From Chlorobiota bacterium (lineage in GTDB: Bacteria; Bacteroidota; Ignavibacteria; OLB7), in the NCBI GenBank assembly GCA_028287785.1, contig JAQBOZ010000028.1, positions 1 to 64,000 on the forward strand: 64,000 bases of DNA, read 5' to 3'. Both the position numbers and the translations under genes were made by a program. The notes beneath the pieces were generated by a model, which made no database searches, had not been told where the DNA came from, and was given only the letters and a program-made list of their open reading frames with translations. This document shows, one piece after another, positions 50,060 through 64,000 of this stretch; the first letter of the stretch is position 1, and each line of letters begins with the position of its first letter.

Positions 50060-53000
50060 TCACTGCCACCATTCGTCGGCCGCGACGATCGCCATCACCA
50101 TCTGATCGATCCCCAGCAACGGGATGCGATCCCCCTGATCATTGCCGCTGGAGATCGTCATCCCCATCACCAGCGTTCCGTTCCTCGTCTCCGGCCGTAT
50201 CTGCGTATACCATGCCCCAAGCTGCGCCGCCACGGCATCGATATAAATGGCCGGCTCGGAAAGGCCGCAATCGGTGATAAGGAGCAGCGGAATCGTCACC
50301 GGAAGCGATGCATCCCCGGAAACCGCCACGTCGTAGCGATAGCTCATCTCCATCCGCAGCCGCAGATCCTGATTGCCGATCGTGCCGTTGATCATCGCGA
50401 ATGCCGCCGTGAGCGATGCGGTCAGAGTCGCGCCGGTGGGGATGGTGATCGGCGACAGAATCTCGTTGAACGGTTTTATCCCGTTCGCGAATGAGATATC
50501 GGGCGTGCGGAAGATGAAGAGGGGATTGGTCCGCATCCCGCTTACCAGCGTCGCGTTCCGCTCGATCCAGATGTTCGTGATCGCCGATTGCAGCGTCCCG
50601 ATGTCATTGTCGGCAAATGTCAGCACCCGCGTCACATCGCCCCCCTCCCCGGCATCGGCGGCGATATCGGCCGATGCGGTGTACTCCCCGCGATCCGGGT
50701 TCTTCGCATCCTGCGCGAACGTGAAGCCGTCGATCGCCGGCCATGGCGACCAGACGTCGCCGGCAACGCCAAGCCGTTTCATCCGCGTGGCGATGATCGT
50801 CCGGCCGTCGTTCTCGGGACGGAACGCATATTCGTCGATCACCGATACCGGCGCGGCGATCATCGCCGACTTCAGCGCGGTGCGCGTCTCGGCAATCCCC
50901 ATCACCAGCTCCTCGAACCGCCCGATCGCCGCCAGCGCCACATTCTGATCGCCACGAGTTCTGATCTGCTCGAAATGCGACGCCACCGCCGGATACTCCG
51001 CCGTAAACCGCGCCAGCCCCTCGAACCGATCAGCCGGCAGCGGACGTGCCGCGCCCGAAACCATCGCCGCCACGGCCCCGGTCCCGGCCGGTCCACCGGT
51101 CGCCGCGTTGTATGTCACCACCATGTGAATCAGATCCTGCCCGATACGTGGGTGGTTGTACGCGACCTGATAGCTCCACTTCAGCGCGTCCGCCAGGTCC
51201 CCGGCGCCGGGATGGCTTGGAAACGCCGCCTGCGACGTAAGCGTCGGCGAGGCGGGATAGAGTCGCAACGGGATCGGTATATCCACGTTGCCGAGCGGCA
51301 CGGTAAGGTCGGCATCGGCGATGGCTCCGCTGTCCAGCACGAACTTCAGCCATGATGAGCTTGCGTAGCCATCGCCGCTCTCGATATCGTACTCCACAAA
51401 CCCGATGCGATAGCCCAGCTCCGCGTCGAAATCCGAGTTCGCCGTCGGCTGCGACGATGTGAAGAGCGTGGTGATATATCGCTTGCCGGTCGTCAGGGGA
51501 ACCTTCGCGGTGGTGAACGTGGCGTTCGGCTTCGGAGGCTCATCGCCGACCGGTGATTGCCCCGCGCCGATCATCATCGTGCCGTAAAGGCCGGACGGCG
51601 GGAGCGGCGCGCCGGAATCGGGAACCGTTACGCTCACGGGAATCTGCACCACCGTGTTCACCTCGTACGCGCTCGACAGGCGAACCAGCAGCTTCTGATA
51701 GAACGCGGCCACCGCCGCCTGAAGGGCCTCCTCCGGCGCCGTCTGATCGGCAAAGACCGTGACAATGCCCGTCGCGATATCCGATGCGATCTTCTCCTTG
51801 TGCGCCATCAGCCGGGCGTAGATGTCCGGGGCAAGATCGGCGGCCGGAAGCGCCAGCGAGGGATCGAGAAAGGCGTCGAAGGCCGCCAGGAAACAGCGCA
51901 TCCAGACTTCGACATCGATATTCGCGAACGTTATGGAAACCGGGGTGAAATCATCATCGCCCCCGTTCCATTGCGCCTTGTAATCGCGGACAACCACGGT
52001 GCCGCTCTGAAGCGAGGTATGATCCGGCGGGGGCGCGTAGTACAGCGGCGTCTGATCGTCCGCGCGCGCTATCCGAACCCCGTCGGCCGGGTTGATGCGA
52101 ACCGCCCAGAGCGATGTATTCCCGGTCTGAAGCGCTCCCCGCATCGCTCGCGGCGTGCCGCCGCCATTCGCCGCGCCAACCGCCAGCTTGAAGGCCCCGT
52201 TGAACGCGGCCTCGAACGCGCCGGCGAACGCCTCAAGCGAGTTGGCGGGAGGGGCCGCATCGGGCGTCGCCGTTCCGTTCGCCGCGATTGCCGGAGCGGG
52301 CGCCGCGGTTATCAGCGGCGGGATCGTCATCGTCACGGAGCCGGCGCCGGGGTTCTGCGCGTCGACATACTTCGTCCGCGCGAGGGTGATGGTGACATCC
52401 AGCGCGAAGATCGGCTCCTTCGGCAGAGCGGCATCCGCCATCGGAAACGCCAGCGATGTGACGATGATGCCGCCGCTCTCCCCGCCGTTCATCACGCCGC
52501 GCAGCTCCGCGCGAATCTTCTCAACGAACAGCGCAAGGTCGGACGTGAGCCCGGTCGCGATGGCAACGGAATTCCCCGGAGCCAGCGTGGTATCGAACGC
52601 GGCAACGACGTTCGGATCGGTGATCTGATCGTAGATCAGGTTGTACGCCACAAGCGCGTCGGCCGCCCGCTCCGCCGTCTGCGACCCCTGCGTGCCGATG
52701 ATGCCCGACGGATCGAAATCGATCGCGATCGTTACCCCCGCCGGGGGGCCGCCCACCGTGTAGTGGATTCCGACCCCGGGCCAGCCGGTGATCGGAAGCA
52801 GGGAATCGTAGTACATGATCCGCGGAACCGTCAGCGTGGCGGGGAGCGCGGCTGGCGCCGGATTGCCGTAGAGATCGAGCGCGACAAACTCCAGCGTGAT
52901 CGATGAGCCGACGCCCAGATAGCGGTTCGGCGGCGATCCGGCCGGGCGTTTCGCGAACCTGTGGAACGCGAGCGTCTGCTGGTAGTTCCAGAATTCCGGT

Positions 53001-56000
53001 TCCGGTGCCGTCAGGGCGCGGAGCCTGCGGAGATCGAACTCCTCCCTGCTCGTCGTGGGATCGGCCGGGCCGACCGGAAGCCCCCACATCGATTCATCGA
53101 ACGCATCGCTCCCCACGATCCTGCATTGAACCAGATTGAAGAGATTATCCAGATCGGCCTGCGGGCTGGCGGCGCCGAACTTCGGGTTGTTCCGTTGCAG
53201 CGTAACGCCGATACATCCGGCCGGAACCACCGGCTCGAACTCCATCACATCCGGCGTCGTCGCAACGTAGATGCCGCCGGCCCCGGAATCGGCGGGCGCC
53301 GCGGCCACGGCGACGTTGTGGAACTGACGGATGGCATCGCTCCCGGAAGGGAACTGGATGAGGATGGAAAACGGGGCGCTCCGGCCGTCGTTGAAGATGC
53401 TCTCGGGGAGATCGGCCCCATCCACCGCCTCGTAGTAGAGATAGAACCCGCCGGAGTTGACGATGCTGCATTCCCAGACGAGCGTCAGGAAATCGCCGGC
53501 CGCCGAGAGCTTTGCGTAGACGGGATCGGCCGCATCATCGGCAAGGCCCGTCAGCATTGCGGAGCCCTGAGGATTGCTCGACGTGGAGAGATTGGTCTTC
53601 ACCAGCCCCACGCGGGCTCCCGGCGCGCGCGCGATCATCCCGCCGCTCCCCGACGGATAGAGAAGCTCCAGCGATTGAATTCCGCTCACCGCGCCATCAT
53701 CGATCACCATCCTCAGCAGATTTCTGCTCGCCTCGTCGGTCCCGCCGATCTGATAGATGTGCGGCTGATAGGCGGTGCTCTTCCCCCCGGCATCCGCGTT
53801 GCCGTCGGAGCGGGCGGCGACACGGCTCACGGTGAGATCGATCCTGAGGCCGGGGGAGAACGAGAGAGGGCTCCCCTGATCGGAATTGCCGGGGATAAAC
53901 TGAAGCGTCGTCCGAAGAGAATCGCCGGTCACGGCCGCCATCAGCGGGCCATCCAGCGAGATGATCTCGAACGGATTCCCCGGAGCCGTGTCGGGACGAC
54001 CCAGGGGAATCAGGTTCTTCAGGGAGAAATTCTTCGCGGCCGGAAGGATCGGCTCGACGAGCGTCCTCGTGGGGATATCCCCATTCGGAACCAGCCCGGC
54101 GAACGCCTGGAACGCCGCCAGCCCGTCGGCGCCATCGATCGTGAAGAGGGGCGCCGCATCGCCCGTGCCAAGCACCAGCCACTCCGGGGCAACCCCCTCC
54201 GCCCCCTTGCAGGCCAGATCGAGCGAGACGGTGTAGGCGTTGTCGTCGATGCAGATGGGGAACTGCTGGCCGGTCATCCGGTAGAGCGGCGAAAGCGGAA
54301 GCCCCGGCCACGCCGAGGAATCGGCCGGGAGCTCCTCCGGCAGTCGCAGCCCGTTGAGCATAAAGCGCGAGACCTTGCCGGCGATGGTTCCGTAGTCGAT
54401 CGCCGCCAGCGCATCGCCGATCGATATCCCCGCGCCGCCGTCGGCAACCGCCTGGATCTGCCCCTGAAGCTCGCCGGAGATCAGGTCGAAATAATCGACG
54501 AAGAGGATCTTCGCCATCGAGGCATCCCCGGCCGCCGTGGCGCCGAGCGATTGGGGAGCATCGGGCCCCGCGAAGGCGATCGCCATCTCGTTGAAATAAT
54601 CGCTCAGGCTCGCGGAATAGGAATCGGGCTTTGCGTTATGGTCCTGGAACGACAGGCACCAGGACTTCCCGCCGCATTCGCCGGCAACGTTTACGAACAG
54701 CTCCGCGAAGACCGGAAAAACCACGGCGCTCCGCGATCCTGCATCCGCGCCATCGGGGGCGGGCGGCTGGCATTCCACCGTGAAGGTGAAGTATTTGGTC
54801 AGGAAATCGATTCGCTGCTGGTACGCATCGTTGACGGAGCCGGCACCGGCGCGCACCGCCCCGCGCTCCCGGCGGAGCATATCGCCAAGGTTCCCGATCT
54901 CCGACGGGGAGATCATCCCATTGTCCGGCATCGCGGTCCCCGCGACCGTCGCCAGCAGTTCCTTCGCCAGCGCGTTCACCATCAGCTCGAACGGCGATGT
55001 CCCATCCGATCCGGTCGCGATGGCAAGGCCCGCGATAAAGCAGGGGGAGCCATCGGCGTGGGAGAGCTGCGGCGTGAAGACCAGCGCAAGCGACGTGGGA
55101 CTATCCGGCGCGGCAATCGTAGAGGCTGCCAGCCCGCTCCAGAGAAGACCGGCCATGCGCTCCGCTTTTGCGGCGAGCATGCGGGAGGAGCCGTTGTCGA
55201 TTTCAAAACTCATGCTGATATCGGTATGGAATGAGAAGCTGATCGTGATTGATATGCGATGGCCGAAGATCCTGAACCCGCCGATCTCCACGCTGATCTC
55301 CACCGAGACATAGGCGTTCAACTGGATCAGCGTTTTTTTGTTGGTCTCGAACGTGGCGGTGACGCTGGCCCCCAGGCTGATGGTGAGCGATGCCTTGACG
55401 ATGCCGAAATCGACAACCCCCTGGAGCACGCCGGTGATGCCGAACGTGCCGCGGAACCAGAAATAATCCGGCGTCGCGTTCCCCGCCGTCGCGCCGTCCG
55501 CGATCCACGCCAGCCTCCCCTCGAAGACGCCGTAGAGCGAGAGCGTGGCGCTCGCCTTCAGTATCCCCTTGTTGAACTCCCGCCCCACTCCCAGGCTCAA
55601 TGCGATGCCGAACGCAACGATGGGGTTGTAGTCGTGATCGGTCGGCATGTCGGTCACGGTGGCGCTGCTCAGCTTCGCGATATAGAAGCCGGCGCGGCCG
55701 ATGAACGGAAATACCTGCACGGTGATCGATCGCTCCCCGAGCGGCCAGCCGATGCTCAGCTTGAAATCGCCGTTGGTGTAGATCCAGATGGCGATCGATG
55801 GGAGGGTCAGCGAGAGGGAGCCCAGATCGATCTGGCGATACGCGGTGGGAAGCGTGAAGTCGAGATAATACAGCCCGATATCATCGCTGATTTTTTTATA
55901 GACGATCTCGAAACTCAGCCCCGCCAGCGGCGCCTTGTCGATGCCGATCCGCAGCCCGTACATGTTAGGATCGCTGAAGACCGCCTGAAGCGTGAAGAGC

Positions 56001-56746
56001 TTGGCGACGGCGAGATCGACCCCGATCAGCCAGCCGGCGTCGGCATCGTAGAAGCTCAGCAGGCCGGTGATATCATCCCCCTCCACCGGCTTGAGATTAT
56101 CGCGCATCGCCTTGATGGCGTCGGCCACCGTGACGATGCCGGTCCCGGCCGGAACGGTAAAGCGCTGGCCGAAGCCCAGATAGTTGAGCTTGAACGCCGG
56201 ATCATCGGGGACCGGCGTCGGGAAGGGATATTCCAGCACCCGCCGCTGGTTCAGGATGGTCACATCGGCGCCGAAATCGAAGCTCCCGCTCCCCTTCCCC
56301 CCGCCGCCGATATCGACGACAAAGCCGTTGAAGCTGATCCCCAGCACCGACGGGCCGATATCCACCGGCTTCTCCAGCAGCAGACCTCCCTGCACCCGCG
56401 CAAGGCTCTCGCCGGGAAGCATCGTCAGGCTGGGGGTGAACGTGACGCCGCCGACCGCGCCCCAGATGGAATCCCAGGGAGAAGAAAGCTCCGGCAGCGC
56501 ATAGCCGAACCAGCCGATGACCTTCTGCAGAATCTCCCGCAGCGAAACCGGCGCCGTGGTGGTCAGCGTGAAGGCGGTCCCCTTGCCGGAGATATCGAGG
56601 TAGATCAGAATCTCGGTCCCCCCCGACAACGTCGCGGTCGCGATATCCGCCGCCGCGATATCGCCATCATCTCCCCCCGCAATCCCCAGCTCCGCGATCG
56701 ACGTGCCGAGCGCCATCCGGGCCTCGAACCTGACTGAGAGGCTCAT
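50060..56746 (-). CDS. Giant uncharacterised protein (2228 residues)
   Basis: The last gene of a tight minus-strand unit. No signal peptide or TM helix is evident, so it is probably cytoplasmic. It is built mainly of beta-strand-like segments. The first 600 residues include WDSIWGAVGGVTFTP, then IYTNGDFKLSIGWPLGERS near 332, VFPFIGRAGFYIAKLSSATV and SLGVGREFNKGILKASATL. These recall large uncharacterised bacterial proteins, possibly of the DUF6603 type; this is from memory and not certain. The rest has no recognised domain, though segments like LEFVALDLYGNPAPAALPA recur in style. GAGGAGAG precedes the ATG at 56746; the frame is open 24 codons upstream. No catalytic motif seen. Confidence 0.75.
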   Translation of the reverse strand: MSLSVRFEARMALGTSIAELGIAGGDDGDIAAADIATATLSGGTEILIYLDISGKGTAFTLTTTAPVSLREILQKVIGWFGYALPELSSPWDSIWGAVGGVTFTPSLTMLPGESLARVQGGLLLEKPVDIGPSVLGISFNGFVVDIGGGGKGSGSFDFGADVTILNQRRVLEYPFPTPVPDDPAFKLNYLGFGQRFTVPAGTGIVTVADAIKAMRDNLKPVEGDDITGLLSFYDADAGWLIGVDLAVAKLFTLQAVFSDPNMYGLRIGIDKAPLAGLSFEIVYKKISDDIGLYYLDFTLPTAYRQIDLGSLSLTLPSIAIWIYTNGDFKLSIGWPLGERSITVQVFPFIGRAGFYIAKLSSATVTDMPTDHDYNPIVAFGIALSLGVGREFNKGILKASATLSLYGVFEGRLAWIADGATAGNATPDYFWFRGTFGITGVLQGVVDFGIVKASLTISLGASVTATFETNKKTLIQLNAYVSVEISVEIGGFRIFGHRISITISFSFHTDISMSFEIDNGSSRMLAAKAERMAGLLWSGLAASTIAAPDSPTSLALVFTPQLSHADGSPCFIAGLAIATGSDGTSPFELMVNALAKELLATVAGTAMPDNGMISPSEIGNLGDMLRRERGAVRAGAGSVNDAYQQRIDFLTKYFTFTVECQPPAPDGADAGSRSAVVFPVFAELFVNVAGECGGKSWCLSFQDHNAKPDSYSASLSDYFNEMAIAFAGPDAPQSLGATAAGDASMAKILFVDYFDLISGELQGQIQAVADGGAGISIGDALAAIDYGTIAGKVSRFMLNGLRLPEELPADSSAWPGLPLSPLYRMTGQQFPICIDDNAYTVSLDLACKGAEGVAPEWLVLGTGDAAPLFTIDGADGLAAFQAFAGLVPNGDIPTRTLVEPILPAAKNFSLKNLIPLGRPDTAPGNPFEIISLDGPLMAAVTGDSLRTTLQFIPGNSDQGSPLSFSPGLRIDLTVSRVAARSDGNADAGGKSTAYQPHIYQIGGTDEASRNLLRMVIDDGAVSGIQSLELLYPSGSGGMIARAPGARVGLVKTNLSTSSNPQGSAMLTGLADDAADPVYAKLSAAGDFLTLVWECSIVNSGGFYLYYEAVDGADLPESIFNDGRSAPFSILIQFPSGSDAIRQFHNVAVAAAPADSGAGGIYVATTPDVMEFEPVVPAGCIGVTLQRNNPKFGAASPQADLDNLFNLVQCRIVGSDAFDESMWGLPVGPADPTTSREEFDLRRLRALTAPEPEFWNYQQTLAFHRFAKRPAGSPPNRYLGVGSSITLEFVALDLYGNPAPAALPATLTVPRIMYYDSLLPITGWPGVGIHYTVGGPPAGVTIAIDFDPSGIIGTQGSQTAERAADALVAYNLIYDQITDPNVVAAFDTTLAPGNSVAIATGLTSDLALFVEKIRAELRGVMNGGESGGIIVTSLAFPMADAALPKEPIFALDVTITLARTKYVDAQNPGAGSVTMTIPPLITAAPAPAIAANGTATPDAAPPANSLEAFAGAFEAAFNGAFKLAVGAANGGGTPRAMRGALQTGNTSLWAVRINPADGVRIARADDQTPLYYAPPPDHTSLQSGTVVVRDYKAQWNGGDDDFTPVSITFANIDVEVWMRCFLAAFDAFLDPSLALPAADLAPDIYARLMAHKEKIASDIATGIVTVFADQTAPEEALQAAVAAFYQKLLVRLSSAYEVNTVVQIPVSVTVPDSGAPLPPSGLYGTMMIGAGQSPVGDEPPKPNATFTTAKVPLTTGKRYITTLFTSSQPTANSDFDAELGYRIGFVEYDIESGDGYASSSWLKFVLDSGAIADADLTVPLGNVDIPIPLRLYPASPTLTSQAAFPSHPGAGDLADALKWSYQVAYNHPRIGQDLIHMVVTYNAATGGPAGTGAVAAMVSGAARPLPADRFEGLARFTAEYPAVASHFEQIRTRGDQNVALAAIGRFEELVMGIAETRTALKSAMIAAPVSVIDEYAFRPENDGRTIIATRMKRLGVAGDVWSPWPAIDGFTFAQDAKNPDRGEYTASADIAADAGEGGDVTRVLTFADNDIGTLQSAITNIWIERNATLVSGMRTNPLFIFRTPDISFANGIKPFNEILSPITIPTGATLTASLTAAFAMINGTIGNQDLRLRMEMSYRYDVAVSGDASLPVTIPLLLITDCGLSEPAIYIDAVAAQLGAWYTQIRPETRNGTLVMGMTISSGNDQGDRIPLLGIDQMVMAIVAADEWWQ

Positions 56747-56867
56747 GGTTATATCTCTCCTCGATGGATAAGCGACCCCGCGGGGCCGATGGGTGCCAGT
56801 GCCGGACAACGAAACCACGGGCGCCGCCGCATCGAAGGACGCGACGGCGCATCAGCCAACAGCCATG

Positions 56868-57350
56868 TCACGCGGACGCGGCCTTGTAGTTGATCACCAC
56901 GCTCGCGGAGTTCATCGTGACCCCCGCGACCAGCGTGAGATTGAATGTGAAGGTAAGCCCGAGCACCAGAATCCCGGCCGCGGTATCGATCTGAAATTTG
57001 TCGATCGTCGTGGTGGTGCTGCCGAACTTCTGAAGGAACACGTTTGAATCCCACGGCAGCACCGGCATGCCGATCTGCTGCCCGATGGAGCTGGTCCTGA
57101 TCGCGTCGTAGGCATCCTTCACCGATCCAAGCTCCACCGGCGCGGAGAGGGTGAACTTGAAGGTCCCCTCCGTCACCTTCGTGATATCGTCGGTGCTGAC
57201 CGCGACGACCTTGCCGCCGAACGTAAACGACGCGCCGAACCCGACGACGAGCGAACTCGGGGTGGCGGCGACATCGGCGACCGCGCCGGTTGATCTCAGG
57301 AGCGGCTTCGGCCCGCTGCTTTTAACGATGCTCTTCGTTGCTTTCGCCAT
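56868..57350 (-). CDS. Small uncharacterised protein of the giant-protein operon (160 residues)
   Basis: It has a basic, low-complexity N-terminus (MAKATKSIVKSSGPK) and a beta-rich body. Residues about 70-125 (FKFTLSAPVELGSVKDAYDA, PVLPWDSNVFLQKFGSTTTT) resemble residues about 50-110 of the 2228-residue protein (FTLTTTAPVSLREI, LPELSSPWDSIWG). It has no signal peptide. The start lies inside the end of the preceding gene (55-bp overlap) with a GGAGAGAG site before it. It may be a subunit or chaperone of the giant protein. Confidence 0.65.
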   Translation of the reverse strand: MAKATKSIVKSSGPKPLLRSTGAVADVAATPSSLVVGFGASFTFGGKVVAVSTDDITKVTEGTFKFTLSAPVELGSVKDAYDAIRTSSIGQQIGMPVLPWDSNVFLQKFGSTTTTIDKFQIDTAAGILVLGLTFTFNLTLVAGVTMNSASVVINYKAASA

Positions 57351-57709
57351 GTGCTCTCTCCTTTCAAAGATGGGTTGATGATGATGTTGACCTGTACCGA
57401 AACTGTGTTGATTGCCACCTGCGGGACGATCTCCCACGGCCCCGTCACCCCGTAGATGCACTCCGCCCCATCGCTCTCCGGCACGCCGACCGGGGAGGCG
57501 AAGAGGAGCGCGAACGGGCTGCCATCGGGGAAGTCCGATGCTCTCGGGAGATCGACGCCGAAACGGGCGTTGAGCGTCCCCATCAGATCGTCCACGGTGG
57601 TCGCCGCGGGGCATCCTCCCTCGGTCGAGGATGGCGCCGGTACGGGGATGGCCTGTTTACGCCTCACGCTCTTCTCCGCTGGCTGGTTGTTGTTCCTGAC
57701 TACGCGCAT
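57296..57709 (-). CDS. Small uncharacterised protein of the giant-protein operon (137 residues)
   Basis: A basic N-terminus (MRVVRNNNQPAEKSVRRKQ) followed by CPAATTVDDLMGTLNARFGV, GSPFALLFASPVGVPESD and CIYGVTGPWEIVPQVAINTV, VQVNIIINP. It starts 3 bp after the 1139-residue protein ends, and its tail overlaps the next start by 55 bp, so translation is coupled. Two cysteines are far apart. The function is unknown; the last 25 residues are arginine-rich and may be a read-through tail. Confidence 0.6.
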   Translation of the reverse strand: MRVVRNNNQPAEKSVRRKQAIPVPAPSSTEGGCPAATTVDDLMGTLNARFGVDLPRASDFPDGSPFALLFASPVGVPESDGAECIYGVTGPWEIVPQVAINTVSVQVNIIINPSLKGESTWRKQRRASLKAAGRSRS

Positions 57710-57712
57710 CGG

Positions 57713-60700
57713 TTACGCATCCTGCGGCTGCACCGCGACATACCACGCAAGGTTGTTGCGCGATGGGTTGTCCCTGCCGGCCAGGAAGAGAAGATCGACG
57801 ATGTAGCCGGGGGGAAGGGTGAACGTAAAGACCTTCAGCGCCACGTTGTTGAACGCCAGCAGATAGCGGTCCCCCGCCACCTTCATCATGTTGCATGTGC
57901 CGAACGTGGTCTGCAATATCCCCTGCAATGTGAAGCCCTTGAAGCCGGGGGTGAGCTGCGGCAGGACGATCGCCACGCAGAGCGCATCATCATCCGGCAC
58001 GGTCCCGCCGGCCCCCCAGCCAACCACCAGATGAGCGTCAAGACCGGCGTGGATCGATGAGAGCGATCCGAGCGATCCCAGTGGAAGCGTGAAGTCGAGC
58101 GCGTATGTCGGCGTCGTGGTCAGATACTCGCGCGGCCCGCCGTTCTCCCGGCCGCCGACAAGCTCGGGGATTCTGACGATCTGCCCTCCAAGGCTCGACG
58201 CTGAAATCCCGTTCGGATCGGTACGGAAGCCGCTCAGCGTCAGGGGCATGGCGGCGGGAAGGCTCCCCGGACGGGGGGAAACTCCGCTCGTGAACCGCAG
58301 CGTCGTCGTTTGAAGCGTGATGGTCCGGTTCTCCGTCGCCCCGGCCGTCGTCAGGAGAAACGCCACGTCGAGATCGAGGCCGGAGAAGGGGAGATCGACG
58401 GCATCGCCATAGCCGAGGAGATCGAACACGGTTCCGGACGGCGAAACGATCGTGTTGAACGCTATCCCCCCGCCAAGCGAAAACGTGCAGCCGATCCACT
58501 CGCCATCGGCCCCGTCCACCACGCTCGTGGTGGCAAACGATGCGCTGGAGATCGTCACCCCGCCGATGGCGCGGAAGAACCCATCCCCGGTATCGGTGGT
58601 GAAGATGTTGTCGTCCGAGCCCTGGAAGGTGAAGATGTTGGTGTCATTGTGCCGCTGCATCGTCCCGTTGATCCTGATCGTGTTTCCTCCGCTCCCGGCA
58701 CGCTGAACCGACCGGCCGAAGAACTGATTCACCGTCAGATCGACCACGCAGTTGTAGCCCACGGTCACGGAGTTCTCGAACGCCACATCGAGCTCGCTCA
58801 CGCTGTAATCGTACGGCAACTGAGCGTCGGCCCGCGTATCAGTGGCCGGCGCGGAGTCCCCACCGAGATCGGGAAGAGGATAGAGGATAAGGCCGGAGAG
58901 GGAGCTCTTCAAACTCCCCTCGGTGATGGGGGCATCCCCCTGGATGATCTGATTCTGCGCGATGACGAGATGATGTCCCCGCATCGGCGCACTCATCCCG
59001 CCCAGCAGCCCCTTCATCTCCCTGGGGAGCGCCACCGGATCGATATCGCAGTTGAGGGCCAGGATTCCCCGCCATGCCGGATCGTCCAGCATGGTGTTGA
59101 AGCCGGCCAGATGCGGGTTCTTCGGATCGTTGTTGACGTAGCTCAGCACGGCCGCGCGGGTCGCCTGCGGATCATCGTTGAAATCCTCCGGCTGCACCCA
59201 GGAGCCCGGATCGGCCAGCAGGTCGCGGGCCGAGATGCCGGTGACATACTTGAAGATCAGGACCCCTCTCAGGGGCTCCCCCCGCGCCGCCAGCGTAAGA
59301 TCGAACGTAAAGCCGTCAACGGGGATCGCCGCATCGAACAGCCCGACGTTTTCCGATCGGGAGATCACCATGAAGAGATCGCCACGGGACATCGCCTGCG
59401 CCAGCTTCGGCGCGACGGTGGAGCCCGCCACCGCCGGATCGCCGTGGAACGCTAGGCTCCCTCCGCTGGCCGGATCGCGCGCCATCACCAGACGGTTCCA
59501 CGATCGCAGGCCGAACTTCATATCCTCCCTGTTCAACACGGCCAGAAGCCCCTGCGGCGTCAACGTCGTCAACTGCGATCCCGGATCATCGATAACGCGC
59601 CCCGTCCGCTGGAGGCGGGAGCTGAAGAGAGGCCCCGTCTGATTTCGAAGCATCGCCCCCTGCCGAACGGTGGCGAGTATCCGGCTTTCGAACCGGGCGA
59701 ACTCCTGGAGATCGGCGGGGGCCGTGATGCCGGCGTACGGGACCATTGGAAACGCATGCCCCGGAGGGATCGCCTGCTGGGGTGGCGATACGATCATCTG
59801 CATCGGCGCCATGATCCCGGCACCCGCCAGCGCGATGCCGTAGTTGACCGCCGTCCCCGACTGCGCGTAATACCCGAACGACTGCGGGTTCTGCATCTTG
59901 TCGACGGCAACCCATGAGGTGGTGGCCGTTCCATCCAGCAACGCGACCCCGCGGAAAGCGCCGCTCACCGGCAGGGAGGCGGCGAACGCGGGCCGGCCGG
60001 GAATGAAGGTGAGGAACGCCTGGGATGAGAGATAGAGGAACTCTACCCCCGAGAGCCCGGTCATCACCGGCGCGCCGAACTGCCCCGACACGCCATCGTT
60101 GAACCCGATGGTAAAGTTCCCGACCGGGGCCAGATAGTATCCGGGAACGCCGCTCCCTCCCGCCGGCATCGTGGCGAATGCAAAGCCCGCGGTCCCCTGC
60201 GGCACCGGATCGGCGGGGGTCAGGCCGGAGGGGCTCAGTGCGGAGGGGACAAGGTTTACCGGAGCGCCGGGAACGGTGCGGAAGAATGTGGGGAGGGGCA
60301 CCGGGGAGGGCGCATTGCTGAGAATCGAGAAGACCGAGCGATCGGGATCGGCCGGGCGGAAGGGATCGAACCGTGCGTCGAATATCACCGCCATATCGCC
60401 GCCACTCCGCGGATCGCGAAGATCGAAGAGAGGATAGCGGAACTCCGTTGCCGCGCCATCCCCCGTCCCGGCGGCATAGTAGCGGAGATCGCCGCCGAAC
60501 TCCGCCAGCCCCGGACGGAGAAGGACAACCTGAAAGCGGAACGAGCAGACCGCGGCGCCATACAGAGGAAGCCGCACGGGGTTTTCAAGGGGATGCTCGG
60601 CCCCTCCGTCGGACGCGCGCATCGTCATGCTCCGAGGTTCGGTCGCGATTCCCAGCGTGAACCCGGCGAGATTATCGTCCAGCGTAACCCCCGTCCCCCC

Positions 60701-61132
60701 GCCGATCGTCAGAGCGATGTTCCCCGTCCGGAACAGGAGCGACCCACGTGTCCGCCGCGTCTCGTCGGGACCGGTTGCGCGATCGAGCGGCAGCGCCAGG
60801 AATGTGGGGATATCGGTGCGGTTATCGATCCAGAGCAGATAATTATCGGCCGGCGGCAGGTTCAACCCGCGCACCCATTCCGCCAACTGATCGCCATTGG
60901 TGACGACCCTGGAGACGATCAGATAATATCCACGGATATATGATGGCTGGTTCCATGTCCGCTCGATCGGGAGCATCGCCGGCATTGCAGCGTCCCGCTT
61001 TTCGGAGACGAAGCAGATGAAGGGAATATCCCCCGCCTGGCTTGAATCGCGGCCGGGGACTCCAATGTAGAAGCCATTCTCCGATTCGAGATTGAAGATG
61101 ATCCCCTCGCCGATGCCGTTCTGCTGTGCCAT
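57713..61132 (-). CDS. Large uncharacterised protein of the giant-protein operon (1139 residues)
   Basis: It has no signal peptide: MAQQNGIGEGIIFNLESENG. The body is beta-rich with many glycine- and aspartate-containing turns (LTIGGGTGVTLDDNLAGFTL, YYLAPVGNFTIGFNDG). The C-terminal 300 residues include VDLPFSGLDLDVAFLL, LPQLTPGFKGFTLQGILQTT, and the ending FTFTLPPGYIVDLLFLAGRD with NLAWYVAVQ, a tail I recall in other giant uncharacterised bacterial proteins. No catalytic motif or TM helix was seen. A tandem ATG occurs at 61135/61132 with GGAGCGG just upstream; ATG 61132 gives better spacing. The open frame further upstream (to 61351) does not look coding. Confidence 0.72.
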   Translation of the reverse strand: MAQQNGIGEGIIFNLESENGFYIGVPGRDSSQAGDIPFICFVSEKRDAAMPAMLPIERTWNQPSYIRGYYLIVSRVVTNGDQLAEWVRGLNLPPADNYLLWIDNRTDIPTFLALPLDRATGPDETRRTRGSLLFRTGNIALTIGGGTGVTLDDNLAGFTLGIATEPRSMTMRASDGGAEHPLENPVRLPLYGAAVCSFRFQVVLLRPGLAEFGGDLRYYAAGTGDGAATEFRYPLFDLRDPRSGGDMAVIFDARFDPFRPADPDRSVFSILSNAPSPVPLPTFFRTVPGAPVNLVPSALSPSGLTPADPVPQGTAGFAFATMPAGGSGVPGYYLAPVGNFTIGFNDGVSGQFGAPVMTGLSGVEFLYLSSQAFLTFIPGRPAFAASLPVSGAFRGVALLDGTATTSWVAVDKMQNPQSFGYYAQSGTAVNYGIALAGAGIMAPMQMIVSPPQQAIPPGHAFPMVPYAGITAPADLQEFARFESRILATVRQGAMLRNQTGPLFSSRLQRTGRVIDDPGSQLTTLTPQGLLAVLNREDMKFGLRSWNRLVMARDPASGGSLAFHGDPAVAGSTVAPKLAQAMSRGDLFMVISRSENVGLFDAAIPVDGFTFDLTLAARGEPLRGVLIFKYVTGISARDLLADPGSWVQPEDFNDDPQATRAAVLSYVNNDPKNPHLAGFNTMLDDPAWRGILALNCDIDPVALPREMKGLLGGMSAPMRGHHLVIAQNQIIQGDAPITEGSLKSSLSGLILYPLPDLGGDSAPATDTRADAQLPYDYSVSELDVAFENSVTVGYNCVVDLTVNQFFGRSVQRAGSGGNTIRINGTMQRHNDTNIFTFQGSDDNIFTTDTGDGFFRAIGGVTISSASFATTSVVDGADGEWIGCTFSLGGGIAFNTIVSPSGTVFDLLGYGDAVDLPFSGLDLDVAFLLTTAGATENRTITLQTTTLRFTSGVSPRPGSLPAAMPLTLSGFRTDPNGISASSLGGQIVRIPELVGGRENGGPREYLTTTPTYALDFTLPLGSLGSLSSIHAGLDAHLVVGWGAGGTVPDDDALCVAIVLPQLTPGFKGFTLQGILQTTFGTCNMMKVAGDRYLLAFNNVALKVFTFTLPPGYIVDLLFLAGRDNPSRNNLAWYVAVQPQDA

Positions 61133-61367: not shown

Positions 61368-61964
61368 CTACTTCAACAGATCGATATGGTTCTCCACCGC
61401 GCGCGCAAGCCCTCCCATCAGCTCAACGCGGCCGAGCACGCAGACGGCGTAGGCGTAGTACATCTGCCAGGCGCATCGCGCGTAGGGCATCCTCCCCTCG
61501 CCCGTGCCGAGCGCGGGACAGAGGATGCTGTTGATCGTTCCGGGGAATTCGGCGTTGTGTTCCCTCACGGCCCGCAGGACCGCGCGGAATGCCCAGTAGA
61601 CATTGACGGTGTTTTCGATGTTGCTCGGGACGCGCATGGTGGGAGCACTGATCAGATACGGAATCCGGGGGTCGAGCGTCTCGACGATCACCGCCTGGCC
61701 CACCGGAAGCTCGCCATCGTGCTTCTCGACAAGCAGCTTGCGGAGCCTCTTTTCCAGGTCCCATCCGAAATGCTGCGTGTAGACCAGATCGATGCCGCCA
61801 TCCATGTAGCCGAAGCTGTTGGCCGGGCTGACGATGGCATCGGCGGTGGAGCGCAGGATATCGCCGTAGATGATCTCCACGTTCTCGAATTCGCCGAAAT
61901 ATTTCTCCAGCTCGGAGACCATCTCGCCATCGAGCACGCAGAACCGGATTATCAGGTTTGTCAT
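61368..61964 (-). CDS. Macro-domain (ADP-ribose-binding) protein
   Basis: A 198-residue single-domain macro protein. The ligand loop is DAIVSPANSFGYMDGGID near residue 40, with the catalytic/ribose-binding Asn and the GG(I)D loop, and CPALGTGEGRMPYARCA near 150 forms the second phosphate loop. Such domains bind or hydrolyse ADP-ribose derivatives. The preceding GTG/ATG choice puts the start at 61964. It is upstream of, and in the same direction as, the giant-protein genes (235 bp gap), so it may be part of the same unit. A palindromic repeat ends 66 bp upstream of its start. Confidence 0.85.
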   Translation of the reverse strand: MTNLIIRFCVLDGEMVSELEKYFGEFENVEIIYGDILRSTADAIVSPANSFGYMDGGIDLVYTQHFGWDLEKRLRKLLVEKHDGELPVGQAVIVETLDPRIPYLISAPTMRVPSNIENTVNVYWAFRAVLRAVREHNAEFPGTINSILCPALGTGEGRMPYARCAWQMYYAYAVCVLGRVELMGGLARAVENHIDLLK

Positions 61965-62030
61965 AGAGGAATTGTGTTTCCCCAAGATACGGCGGCATGC
62001 CGGAGTACGGCGGACCCGGTTTGTTTCCGG

Positions 62031-62356: not shown

Positions 62357-64000
62357 TCAATGCACCACGGTCATCCTGATGATGCGGGAAACGGCATCGC
62401 CGCCGACGGTCAGACGGGCCAGATAGACGCCCGCCGGCAGCGCCGAACCGTCGATGGTTACATCATGATCGCCGCCATCGAAATCCCCCTCGGCCGGCGT
62501 CGCGACAACGCGGCCGAGCGCGTCGAGAAGCTCCAGCCGCGCATGGCGTCGCCACGGGAGGGAGAAGCGGAGCAGCGTGCGCCCGCCGAACGGATTGGGG
62601 GCGTTTTGCGAAAGGAGCACCGCCGAGGCATCGGAGGCATTATCGACGGAGAAATTTTCGCCGGTCTGAAATGACCAGGTATCGGACCAGGGGCCGGCGC
62701 CCCCGGCATTCTCCGCCCGCACGCGCCAGTAGTAGGATGTGTATGATCCCAGGGAGACAAACAGGCTGGTGGCGGTAAGCGTTGAATCGTCCAGAATGGG
62801 GGAGGCGAGCCCGGAATCGGTTGAAAGCTGCAGATGATATCGCGGCGCTCCCGGAACACTGCTCCAGGAAAGGGTCAGGGAAACCGCCAGATCGTGTGCG
62901 CCGGAGCCCGGCGATATAAGAGTGACCGCGGCGGGTGCCGCCACATTCTTTTTGATTTTCACCAGCATCATGTCGCCGTTGCCGCCGGTCTGGAGCGATG
63001 GCGAGTCGGTGCTGCCGCAGGCGATATATCCATCGGCCACCTCGATCACATCGTAACCGCCATCGCTGCCGCTGCCGCCGAATGTCTTTTCCCAGTCCAG
63101 CGTTCCATCGGAGAGCGTCTTCACCACATACATATCCTCGGCCCCTTTCGTATCGTGCGTGGTATAGCCGGCCATGATATATCCGCCATCGGAGGTCTGC
63201 CTGCCCGACCACGCAAATGAATCGGACAAGGGATCGCCGAAATGTTTATCGATGATGATATTTCCCAGCGTATCGATCACCAGCAGCCATATTCTTCCGG
63301 TATATGGGGATTTCGCGAGCGATGAGCCGCCGATGATGGCGTAATTTCCCTCCTTCGTCACGAACGCATGATAGGGGGAATCCTCGGTGGTATCGCTGCT
63401 GCTGAAGATTTTATCCCACTGTTTTGTCCCATTGGAATCGACCTTCACCACCCAGTATTTTTCCTTGTTTCCCACCGACGCATGGCCGGCCAGCAGGCAG
63501 CCGCCGTCGCGCGTTTCGGTGCCCCAGTGCGCGTGTTCGGAACCACCGTGACCGTACGTCTTTTCCCAGACGATATTTCTGGCGGAATCATAGCGGATAA
63601 GCCACATATCCCCCTGCGGATCGCCCTTCGATTCGGTATGCCCGCCGAAATAATATCCCCCTTCCTTCCGCTCGACGAAAAAGTGGAAATGGTCGCTGCT
63701 GCTGTAATCGATCTGAATATTCCAGTTGACCGCCCCGGTCGTATCGATCTTGTACATCAACGCCGATTCGGTTCCGGAGAACTGCACGCCGGTGAACCCT
63801 CCGAGCATGATTCCATGATCCCCCGTGGCGCCGGAGCCGAAGATCGTCTCCTGAATTCCGGCGGTGCCGTAACGTTTATCCCAGATTTTATTTCCATTGG
63901 CGTCGAACCGCGCGGCCCAGAAATCCTGATCGGTCTGCTGATTGCCGGTGGCGGTTCCTCCCGCGGTGATAAAGCCACCATCCGGTTCCGGGAAAATATT
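62357..64000 (-). CDS. 3' part of a T9SS-secreted beta-propeller-like protein with fibronectin type III domain (runs off window)
   Basis: The frame is open to the window edge; 548 codons including the stop are visible. Repeats of the form DGGYIMAGY, GGYYFGGHTES and VVKVDSNGTKQWDK, about 45-50 residues apart, suggest beta-propeller-type blades as in many FCB surface proteins. A fibronectin type III-like domain follows (APAAVTLISPGSGAHDLAV, YYWRVRAENAGGAGPWSD). The last 80 residues are a T9SS sorting domain (SQNAPNPFGGRTLLRFSLP, LDALGRVVA, LPAGVYLARL). Its start and signal peptide lie beyond the window. Confidence 0.8.
   Translation of the reverse strand, partial: NIFPEPDGGFITAGGTATGNQQTDQDFWAARFDANGNKIWDKRYGTAGIQETIFGSGATGDHGIMLGGFTGVQFSGTESALMYKIDTTGAVNWNIQIDYSSSDHFHFFVERKEGGYYFGGHTESKGDPQGDMWLIRYDSARNIVWEKTYGHGGSEHAHWGTETRDGGCLLAGHASVGNKEKYWVVKVDSNGTKQWDKIFSSSDTTEDSPYHAFVTKEGNYAIIGGSSLAKSPYTGRIWLLVIDTLGNIIIDKHFGDPLSDSFAWSGRQTSDGGYIMAGYTTHDTKGAEDMYVVKTLSDGTLDWEKTFGGSGSDGGYDVIEVADGYIACGSTDSPSLQTGGNGDMMLVKIKKNVAAPAAVTLISPGSGAHDLAVSLTLSWSSVPGAPRYHLQLSTDSGLASPILDDSTLTATSLFVSLGSYTSYYWRVRAENAGGAGPWSDTWSFQTGENFSVDNASDASAVLLSQNAPNPFGGRTLLRFSLPWRRHARLELLDALGRVVATPAEGDFDGGDHDVTIDGSALPAGVYLARLTVGGDAVSRIIRMTVVH

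What the first reader, a model, noticed from the sequence alone, without database searches (positions are those of the whole stretch)
50060..61132. Four-gene operon encoding two giant proteins with no recognisable domain
The order is 1139, 137, 160 and 2228 residues, with gaps or overlaps of 3 bp, 55 bp overlap and 121 bp. None has a signal peptide or T9SS tail, unlike every other large protein in the window. The proteins are beta-rich and share stylistic similarities. The two small proteins may be partners of the giants. The architecture suggests a large intracellular assembly or delivered effector of unknown kind.
Basis: partly seen in the sequence, partly recalled or inferred. Interest (0 to 1): 0.75.

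Follow-up and report, generated by a model that had tools for sequence, protein, structure and literature searches.

The report
Unnamed mobile giant-protein gene cassette
Four neighbouring genes, two of them giant, form an unnamed cassette that has jumped sporadically between distantly related bacteria; the largest protein is predicted to contain a membrane-type beta-barrel although it carries no export signal, so it may be part of an unknown pore or delivery machine.

Summary
They carry no signal peptide and give no Pfam, NCBIfam, PHROGs or PDB match at E<=1. They are real genes. The same A-B-C-D order occurs in 14 further loci (Pseudomonas, Xanthomonas, Brenneria, Enterobacter, Glycomyces, Acidobacteria, Gemmatimonadota, Calditrichota, Saprospiraceae, alphaproteobacteria). 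A wider circle of 14 loci, several on plasmids, keeps A and D but replaces B-C, mostly with other genes: EEP phosphodiesterases/nucleases, metallo-beta-lactamase-fold enzymes, a trypsin-like protease, Hint, collagen or LamG proteins. A and D co-evolve (tree correlation 0.95), are always adjacent, and are fused in one genome, so they very probably form one complex. The cassette is rare (about 1% of genomes), absent at this site in close relatives, and phylogenetically scattered, so it is horizontally acquired. Residues 182-520 of D are predicted as a porin-like beta-barrel with an amphipathic pattern conserved even in Gram-positive bacteria. Best guess: a pore or translocator complex with exchangeable partners, aimed at another cell (confidence 0.38). 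A lipid-carrying barrel or an envelope structure is not excluded. No described family was found.

The parts
57713..61132 (-). Gene A, 1139 aa, beta-rich giant of unknown family; conserved partner of D
   Evidence: Translation; homologues in 14 narrow and 14 wide loci; AF2 mean pLDDT 69.5, no convincing fold match
57296..57709 (-). Gene B, 137 aa; motif TVNDLMxWLNxxxGxxLP; present only in the narrow family
   Evidence: alignment A4; weakly similar to C and to the D N-terminus (hhalign P 2e-5 and 9e-5)
56868..57350 (-). Gene C, 160 aa; motif FxLxxPVxLGxxxDFxxWxxxxFGV; overlaps B by 55 bp
   Evidence: alignment A3; faint similarity to N-terminal extensions of wide-family D proteins (0/200 shuffles for three of eleven)
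50060..56746 (-). Gene D, 2228 aa giant; conserved core FNDPAMYGL...IWIYTNGDF...GWP...GFYxAKL
   Evidence: A1 alignment; homologues in 15 genome-contig loci and 8 plasmids
55187..56203 (-). D residues 182-520: predicted porin-like amphipathic beta-barrel
   Evidence: AF2, VIA-align Z up to 12.8, listed rows dominated by outer-membrane barrels; alternation 38 windows against 2.2 expected over the whole protein; pattern kept in all D homologues scored

Best explanation
A-B-C-D is a horizontally acquired cassette for one protein complex. Shown by sequence: A and D are an obligate, co-evolving pair, fused in one genome; they lack signal peptides; B and C accompany them throughout one branch, while in the other branch mostly enzymes or binding-type proteins occupy the same slot or the flanks. 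Predicted: D carries an approximately 16-strand amphipathic beta-barrel. Inferred: D is a pore or translocator that inserts into a target membrane, A is its docking or shell partner, B and C plug or stabilise the N-terminal part of D, and in relatives the complex presents or delivers an enzyme (EEP nuclease/phosphodiesterase, MBL-fold hydrolase, protease). Because the proteins are made without a secretion signal, also in Gram-positive bacteria that have no outer membrane, the likeliest mode is release by cell lysis or a non-Sec route followed by action on another cell, in the manner of (but unrelated in sequence to) Tc-type toxin complexes.
For: A-D adjacency in 13/13 genomes or records, with 3 A and 3 D in G210. 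Patristic distances of A and D trees correlate at r = 0.947, 0/2000 permutations. A and the D barrel lie in one 1731-aa ORF in L056 (A match 288-1100, D match 1121-1566). Barrel; the polar face is 22% Ser and 13% Thr, as in beta-pore hairpins (background knowledge). The pattern is kept in Lysinibacillus, Paenibacillus and Glycomyces, so it is not an ordinary outer-membrane protein. Exchangeable enzymes: EEP in L035, L047, L055, L058 with N/E/H/DxN motifs visible; MBL in L012, L043, L044; Nal1-type protease in L037; PT-HINT above its cut-off in L058. Collagen, LamG and small tandem beta proteins flank the giants as possible binding parts. Rare and mobile: 4/395, 3/398 and 1/246 genomes; plasmid-borne; absent next to purS in the same genus; Glycomyces nests with Pseudomonas/Xanthomonas, away from Brenneria/Enterobacter.
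Against: The model covering the barrel is of moderate quality (mean pLDDT 61.5 for D 1-1150; Foldseek E no better than 1.8e-3). The hydrophobic face is the more conserved one (entropy 1.04 against 1.42, p = 0.005), which fits packed or lipid-filled hydrophobics at least as well as lipid-exposed ones. Four partner enzymes carry Sec or lipoprotein signals, so they are not simply loaded in the cytoplasm with A and D. The window's own locus and L028 have no recognisable enzyme, binding protein, lysis gene or immunity gene that belongs with the four. No target or activity is known.
Confidence: 0.38

Rival explanations
1. Hydrophobic-cargo complex: the amphipathic sheets of D (and perhaps modular C-like repeats in wide D proteins) form a groove or barrel with a hydrophobic interior that binds or conducts lipids, like large lipid-transfer or bridge-like proteins; the EEP and MBL enzymes would then be lipid or phosphodiester hydrolases acting with it.
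For: Hydrophobic face more conserved than the polar face; no signal peptides; weak A-model matches to lipid-binding beta proteins (BPI, LBP, OrfX) at Z about 3 and one D match to MTP among the barrels.
Against: The strong, uniform structural matches are to closed outer-membrane barrels, not to lipid-transfer proteins; collagen, LamG, PT-HINT and protease partners do not fit a lipid role.
Confidence: 0.25
2. Structural or surface assembly of the producer: A-D are fibres or shells of the cell envelope (LysM inserts in wide D, collagen and LamG neighbours, a glycosyltransferase downstream in seven narrow loci), exported by an unknown route.
For: LysM in D of L015, L032, L034, L046, L058; collagen and LamG proteins; MptE+GT2 gene next to D in seven narrow loci; Sec or lipoprotein signals on partner enzymes.
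Against: No Sec, lipoprotein or T9SS signal evident on A or D in any lineage, including Gram-positives; scattered presence in about 1% of genomes; narrow D proteins have no LysM match.
Confidence: 0.22
3. Inward-acting conflict system (anti-phage or abortive infection) in which a large cytoplasmic complex holds an enzyme in check and D perforates the producer's own membrane on a trigger.
For: No signal peptides; sporadic mobile distribution; partner enzymes of nuclease and protease type.
Against: No sensor, NTPase or nucleotide cyclase recurrently next to A-D; some partner enzymes are exported; PADLOC was not searched with these proteins.
Confidence: 0.1

Closest known systems
Tc / ABC toxin complexes (works-like comparison only)
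   Same: Giant subunits without signal peptides, one carrying a membrane-crossing element, interchangeable enzyme parts, mobile distribution
   Different: No Tc, RHS or VRP Pfam match in any A or D homologue scanned; A's best structural row is an Rhs core at Z 4.9 only, which is not evidence of kinship
Polymorphic toxin systems (PMC3482391)
   Same: PT-HINT protein next to A in L058 and swappable enzymes near conserved scaffold genes
   Different: Enzymes are separate genes, not C-terminal tips of the giants; no immunity genes recognised; the window's locus has neither
Bacterial outer-membrane porins
   Same: Predicted barrel of D 182-520 aligns with OmpT, OprO, CymA and others (Z 11-12.8)
   Different: No signal peptide; embedded in a 2100-4300-aa protein; present in Gram-positive bacteria; 4-11% identity to the porins listed
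Contractile injection systems (T6SS, eCIS, tailocins)
   Same: LysM-containing large proteins and collagen-like fibres in some loci
   Different: No sheath, tube, baseplate or injection ATPase recognised in the loci scanned; no PHROGs match; no phage or viral contig hit

Membership tests
Tc/ABC toxins | TcA / TcB / RHS sequence domains in the large subunits | tested here: not met
   hmmscan Pfam of the window proteins and of 12 D and 15 A family members: no Tc or RHS family at E<=1
Tc/ABC toxins | Rhs-type cocoon or TcA-type pore fold | tested here: inconclusive
   A model: Rhs core Z 4.9 over 115 residues, below the level that means kinship; D 1151-2228 not modelled
Polymorphic toxins | Pretoxin/HINT or other processing domain with a toxin tip in the same polypeptide | tested here: not met
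   PT-HINT is in a separate neighbouring protein of L058 only; none in the window proteins
Outer-membrane porins | Closed amphipathic beta-barrel | tested here: inconclusive
   Predicted for D 182-520, Z up to 12.8, but model pLDDT is moderate and the orientation of the hydrophobic face is not settled
Outer-membrane porins | Sec signal peptide and restriction to bacteria with an outer membrane | tested here: not met
   No signal peptide in D; homologues in Lysinibacillus, Paenibacillus, Glycomyces and Embleya
T9SS cargo | Signal peptide plus C-terminal sorting domain | tested here: not met
   No signal peptide, no Pfam or NCBIfam match at the C-termini
Phage tails / contractile injection systems | Sheath, tube, baseplate or ATPase genes nearby | tested here: not met
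   Selected neighbours scanned in narrow and wide loci; PHROGs negative for the four window proteins
Bridge-like / large lipid-transfer proteins | Hydrophobic groove or cavity that holds lipid | not testable with these tools
   Needs a high-confidence structure or lipid co-purification
Known anti-phage defence systems | Match to a PADLOC model | not tested

The most novel reading that the evidence does not exclude
A previously undescribed class of mobile effector-delivery or pore complex, spread over many phyla including Gram-positive bacteria, built on two giant proteins (A and a beta-barrel-bearing D), with an exchangeable slot for EEP, MBL or protease enzymes; the window holds the minimal, deep-branching form in which two small subunits B and C fill that slot.
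Probability: 0.3. Interest if true: 0.9.

Novelty: categorically new. Interest (0 to 1): 0.7.

Why it matters
A pair of giant genes conserved across a wide range of bacterial phyla, yet invisible to Pfam, NCBIfam, PHROGs and PDB sequence searches, is unusual. If the pore/translocator reading holds, it would be a further bacterial delivery or killing machine with exchangeable enzymes, testable in culturable hosts (Pseudomonas, Glycomyces, Lysinibacillus, Paenibacillus). If the lipid reading holds, it would be a new type of bacterial lipid-carrying assembly. Either way a barrel-type fold in a protein without an export signal is a clear, checkable puzzle.

Tried and rejected
Profile searches of each window protein and of family alignments: nothing convincing in Pfam, NCBIfam, PHROGs or PDB sequences. 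Viral origin: no viral contig or phage record encodes a relative; BFVD fold search of A gave nothing below E 0.04. Common ancestry of A and D: not seen. B, C and the N-terminus of D as copies of one module: only a short helix motif is shared; C-like repeats in wide D extensions are suggestive only; the full-length C against D comparison was not significant. DUF6603 as the name of the barrel region: a recalled lead, no Pfam hit. E. coli genomes: no match. tRNA-borne integration: tRNA calls lie inside D coding sequence or far away, uninformative. Macro-domain gene upstream of A as a fifth member: not seen next to any other A-D locus. Literature searches found no description. PDB lists for A show no fold above Z 5; this is weak evidence because the model was folded whole.

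Full report
Observation. All lie on the minus strand, in the order A (1139 aa), B (137), C (160), D (2228). None matches a Pfam, NCBIfam or PHROGs family at E<=1, A and D match no PDB sequence, and none has a signal peptide by a hydrophobicity scan.

Relatives. A genome-contig scan with D found 15 loci. In 14 of them, all except L026, whose contig begins inside D, the order A-B-C-D is conserved, although the giants share only 26-32% identity with the window; in L030 and L031 A itself is cut by the contig end. The hosts span Pseudomonas, Xanthomonas, Brenneria, Enterobacter, Glycomyces, Acidobacteria, Gemmatimonadota, Calditrichota, Saprospiraceae and alphaproteobacteria. I call this the narrow family; the window is its deepest branch. 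In L025 and L031 D is read as two ORFs.

Wider family. B and C are absent there. Between A and D, or just upstream, lie EEP phosphodiesterase/nuclease-type proteins (L035, L047, L055, L058, catalytic motifs visible), MBL-fold enzymes (L012, L043, L044), a Nal1-type protease (L037), Hint proteins (L033, L058; PT-HINT above cut-off in L058), LamG (L035) and collagen repeats (L043). In L034 and L036 nothing is annotated between A and D. D is two genes in Tistrella and Paenibacillus. Several narrow loci have tandem small beta-type proteins upstream, and seven have an MptE+GT2-type gene downstream.

One complex. A was found in every genome or record tested that has D (13/13), beside D in the loci read, with three pairs in G210. 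Tree distances of A and D correlate at 0.947 (0 of 2000 permutations). In G852 an A homologue and the barrel region of D are one open frame of 1731 aa. Together these make a physical A-D partnership very likely; it is still an inference.

Mobility. The cassette is rare: 4 of 395 genomes of the window's phylum, 3 of 398 and 1 of 246 in the phyla of the Pseudomonas and Glycomyces loci, counts that include the genomes known beforehand. The same-genus G210 has the purS-purQ neighbourhood of the window (73.8% DNA identity) but not the cassette there; G128 of the same family likewise. Glycomyces (Actinomycetota) groups with Pseudomonas and Xanthomonas at full support, apart from Brenneria and Enterobacter. 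G+C of the cassette (61-68%) is slightly above most of its flanks (54-64%).

Structure. AlphaFold2 on D 1-1150 with 16 sequences gave mean pLDDT 61.5; residues 182-520 average about 70. VIA-align places that region on outer-membrane barrels, Z up to 12.8, with all listed rows being barrel proteins of the porin, receptor, usher or secretin kind; Foldseek E-values are weak, at best 1.8e-3. Independently of the model, D shows hydrophobic/polar alternation far above shuffles (38 windows against 2.2 expected), mostly in 318-511 and with smaller stretches in 38-170; the pattern is retained in every D homologue scored, including Gram-positive ones. The hydrophobic face is 81% V/L/I/A/F; the other face is 22% Ser and 13% Thr. 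The hydrophobic face is the more conserved, so the lipid-filled alternative stays open. For A (pLDDT 69.5) no fold match reached Z 5.

How it may work. Shown: conserved gene pair, co-evolution, fusion, lack of evident signal peptides, mobility, exchangeable neighbours. Predicted: a barrel in D. Inferred: D forms a pore or translocator, A docks on it, B and C occupy the place that enzymes take in the wider family, and the complex acts on another cell after release. Against this, four partner enzymes carry Sec or lipoprotein signals, and the window's locus has no enzyme that recurs with the cassette.

Novelty. I found no described family, structure or paper for A or D. The paper library is limited to open-licence PMC text, so a description elsewhere cannot be excluded. 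PADLOC was not searched.

Noticed in passing
window 61368-61985 (-): Macro-domain (ADP-ribose binding) protein 236 bp upstream of gene A on the same strand (Pfam Macro E 1e-14); no match in four relatives and not next to other A-D loci.
   Followed up: partly
window 62357-64000 (-): Large protein, cut by the window end, with repeats of the 'DGGYIMAGYT..' type and a C-terminal tail that looks like a T9SS sorting signal.
   Followed up: no
L043 7220-8611 and L044 5023-6399: Collagen-repeat proteins directly upstream of two wide A-D loci in a genome of the window's own genus.
   Followed up: partly
L034 8122-10400 and L015 11300-13570: The approximately 750-aa N-terminal extensions of the 4.1-kaa D proteins are homologous to each other (E 8e-41) and contain a 'TPxxGHQ' motif that looks like a GT-B glycosyltransferase; no Pfam hit.
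   Followed up: no
L019 3889-5457, L022 3878-5448, L017 4930-5316 and 17025-17426: Tandem small (about 120-155 aa) beta-type proteins without signal peptide upstream (in L017 also downstream) of narrow cassettes; no Pfam family.
   Followed up: partly
L012 10892-12340: MBL-fold enzyme between A and D has a lipoprotein-type signal, unlike A and D.
   Followed up: partly
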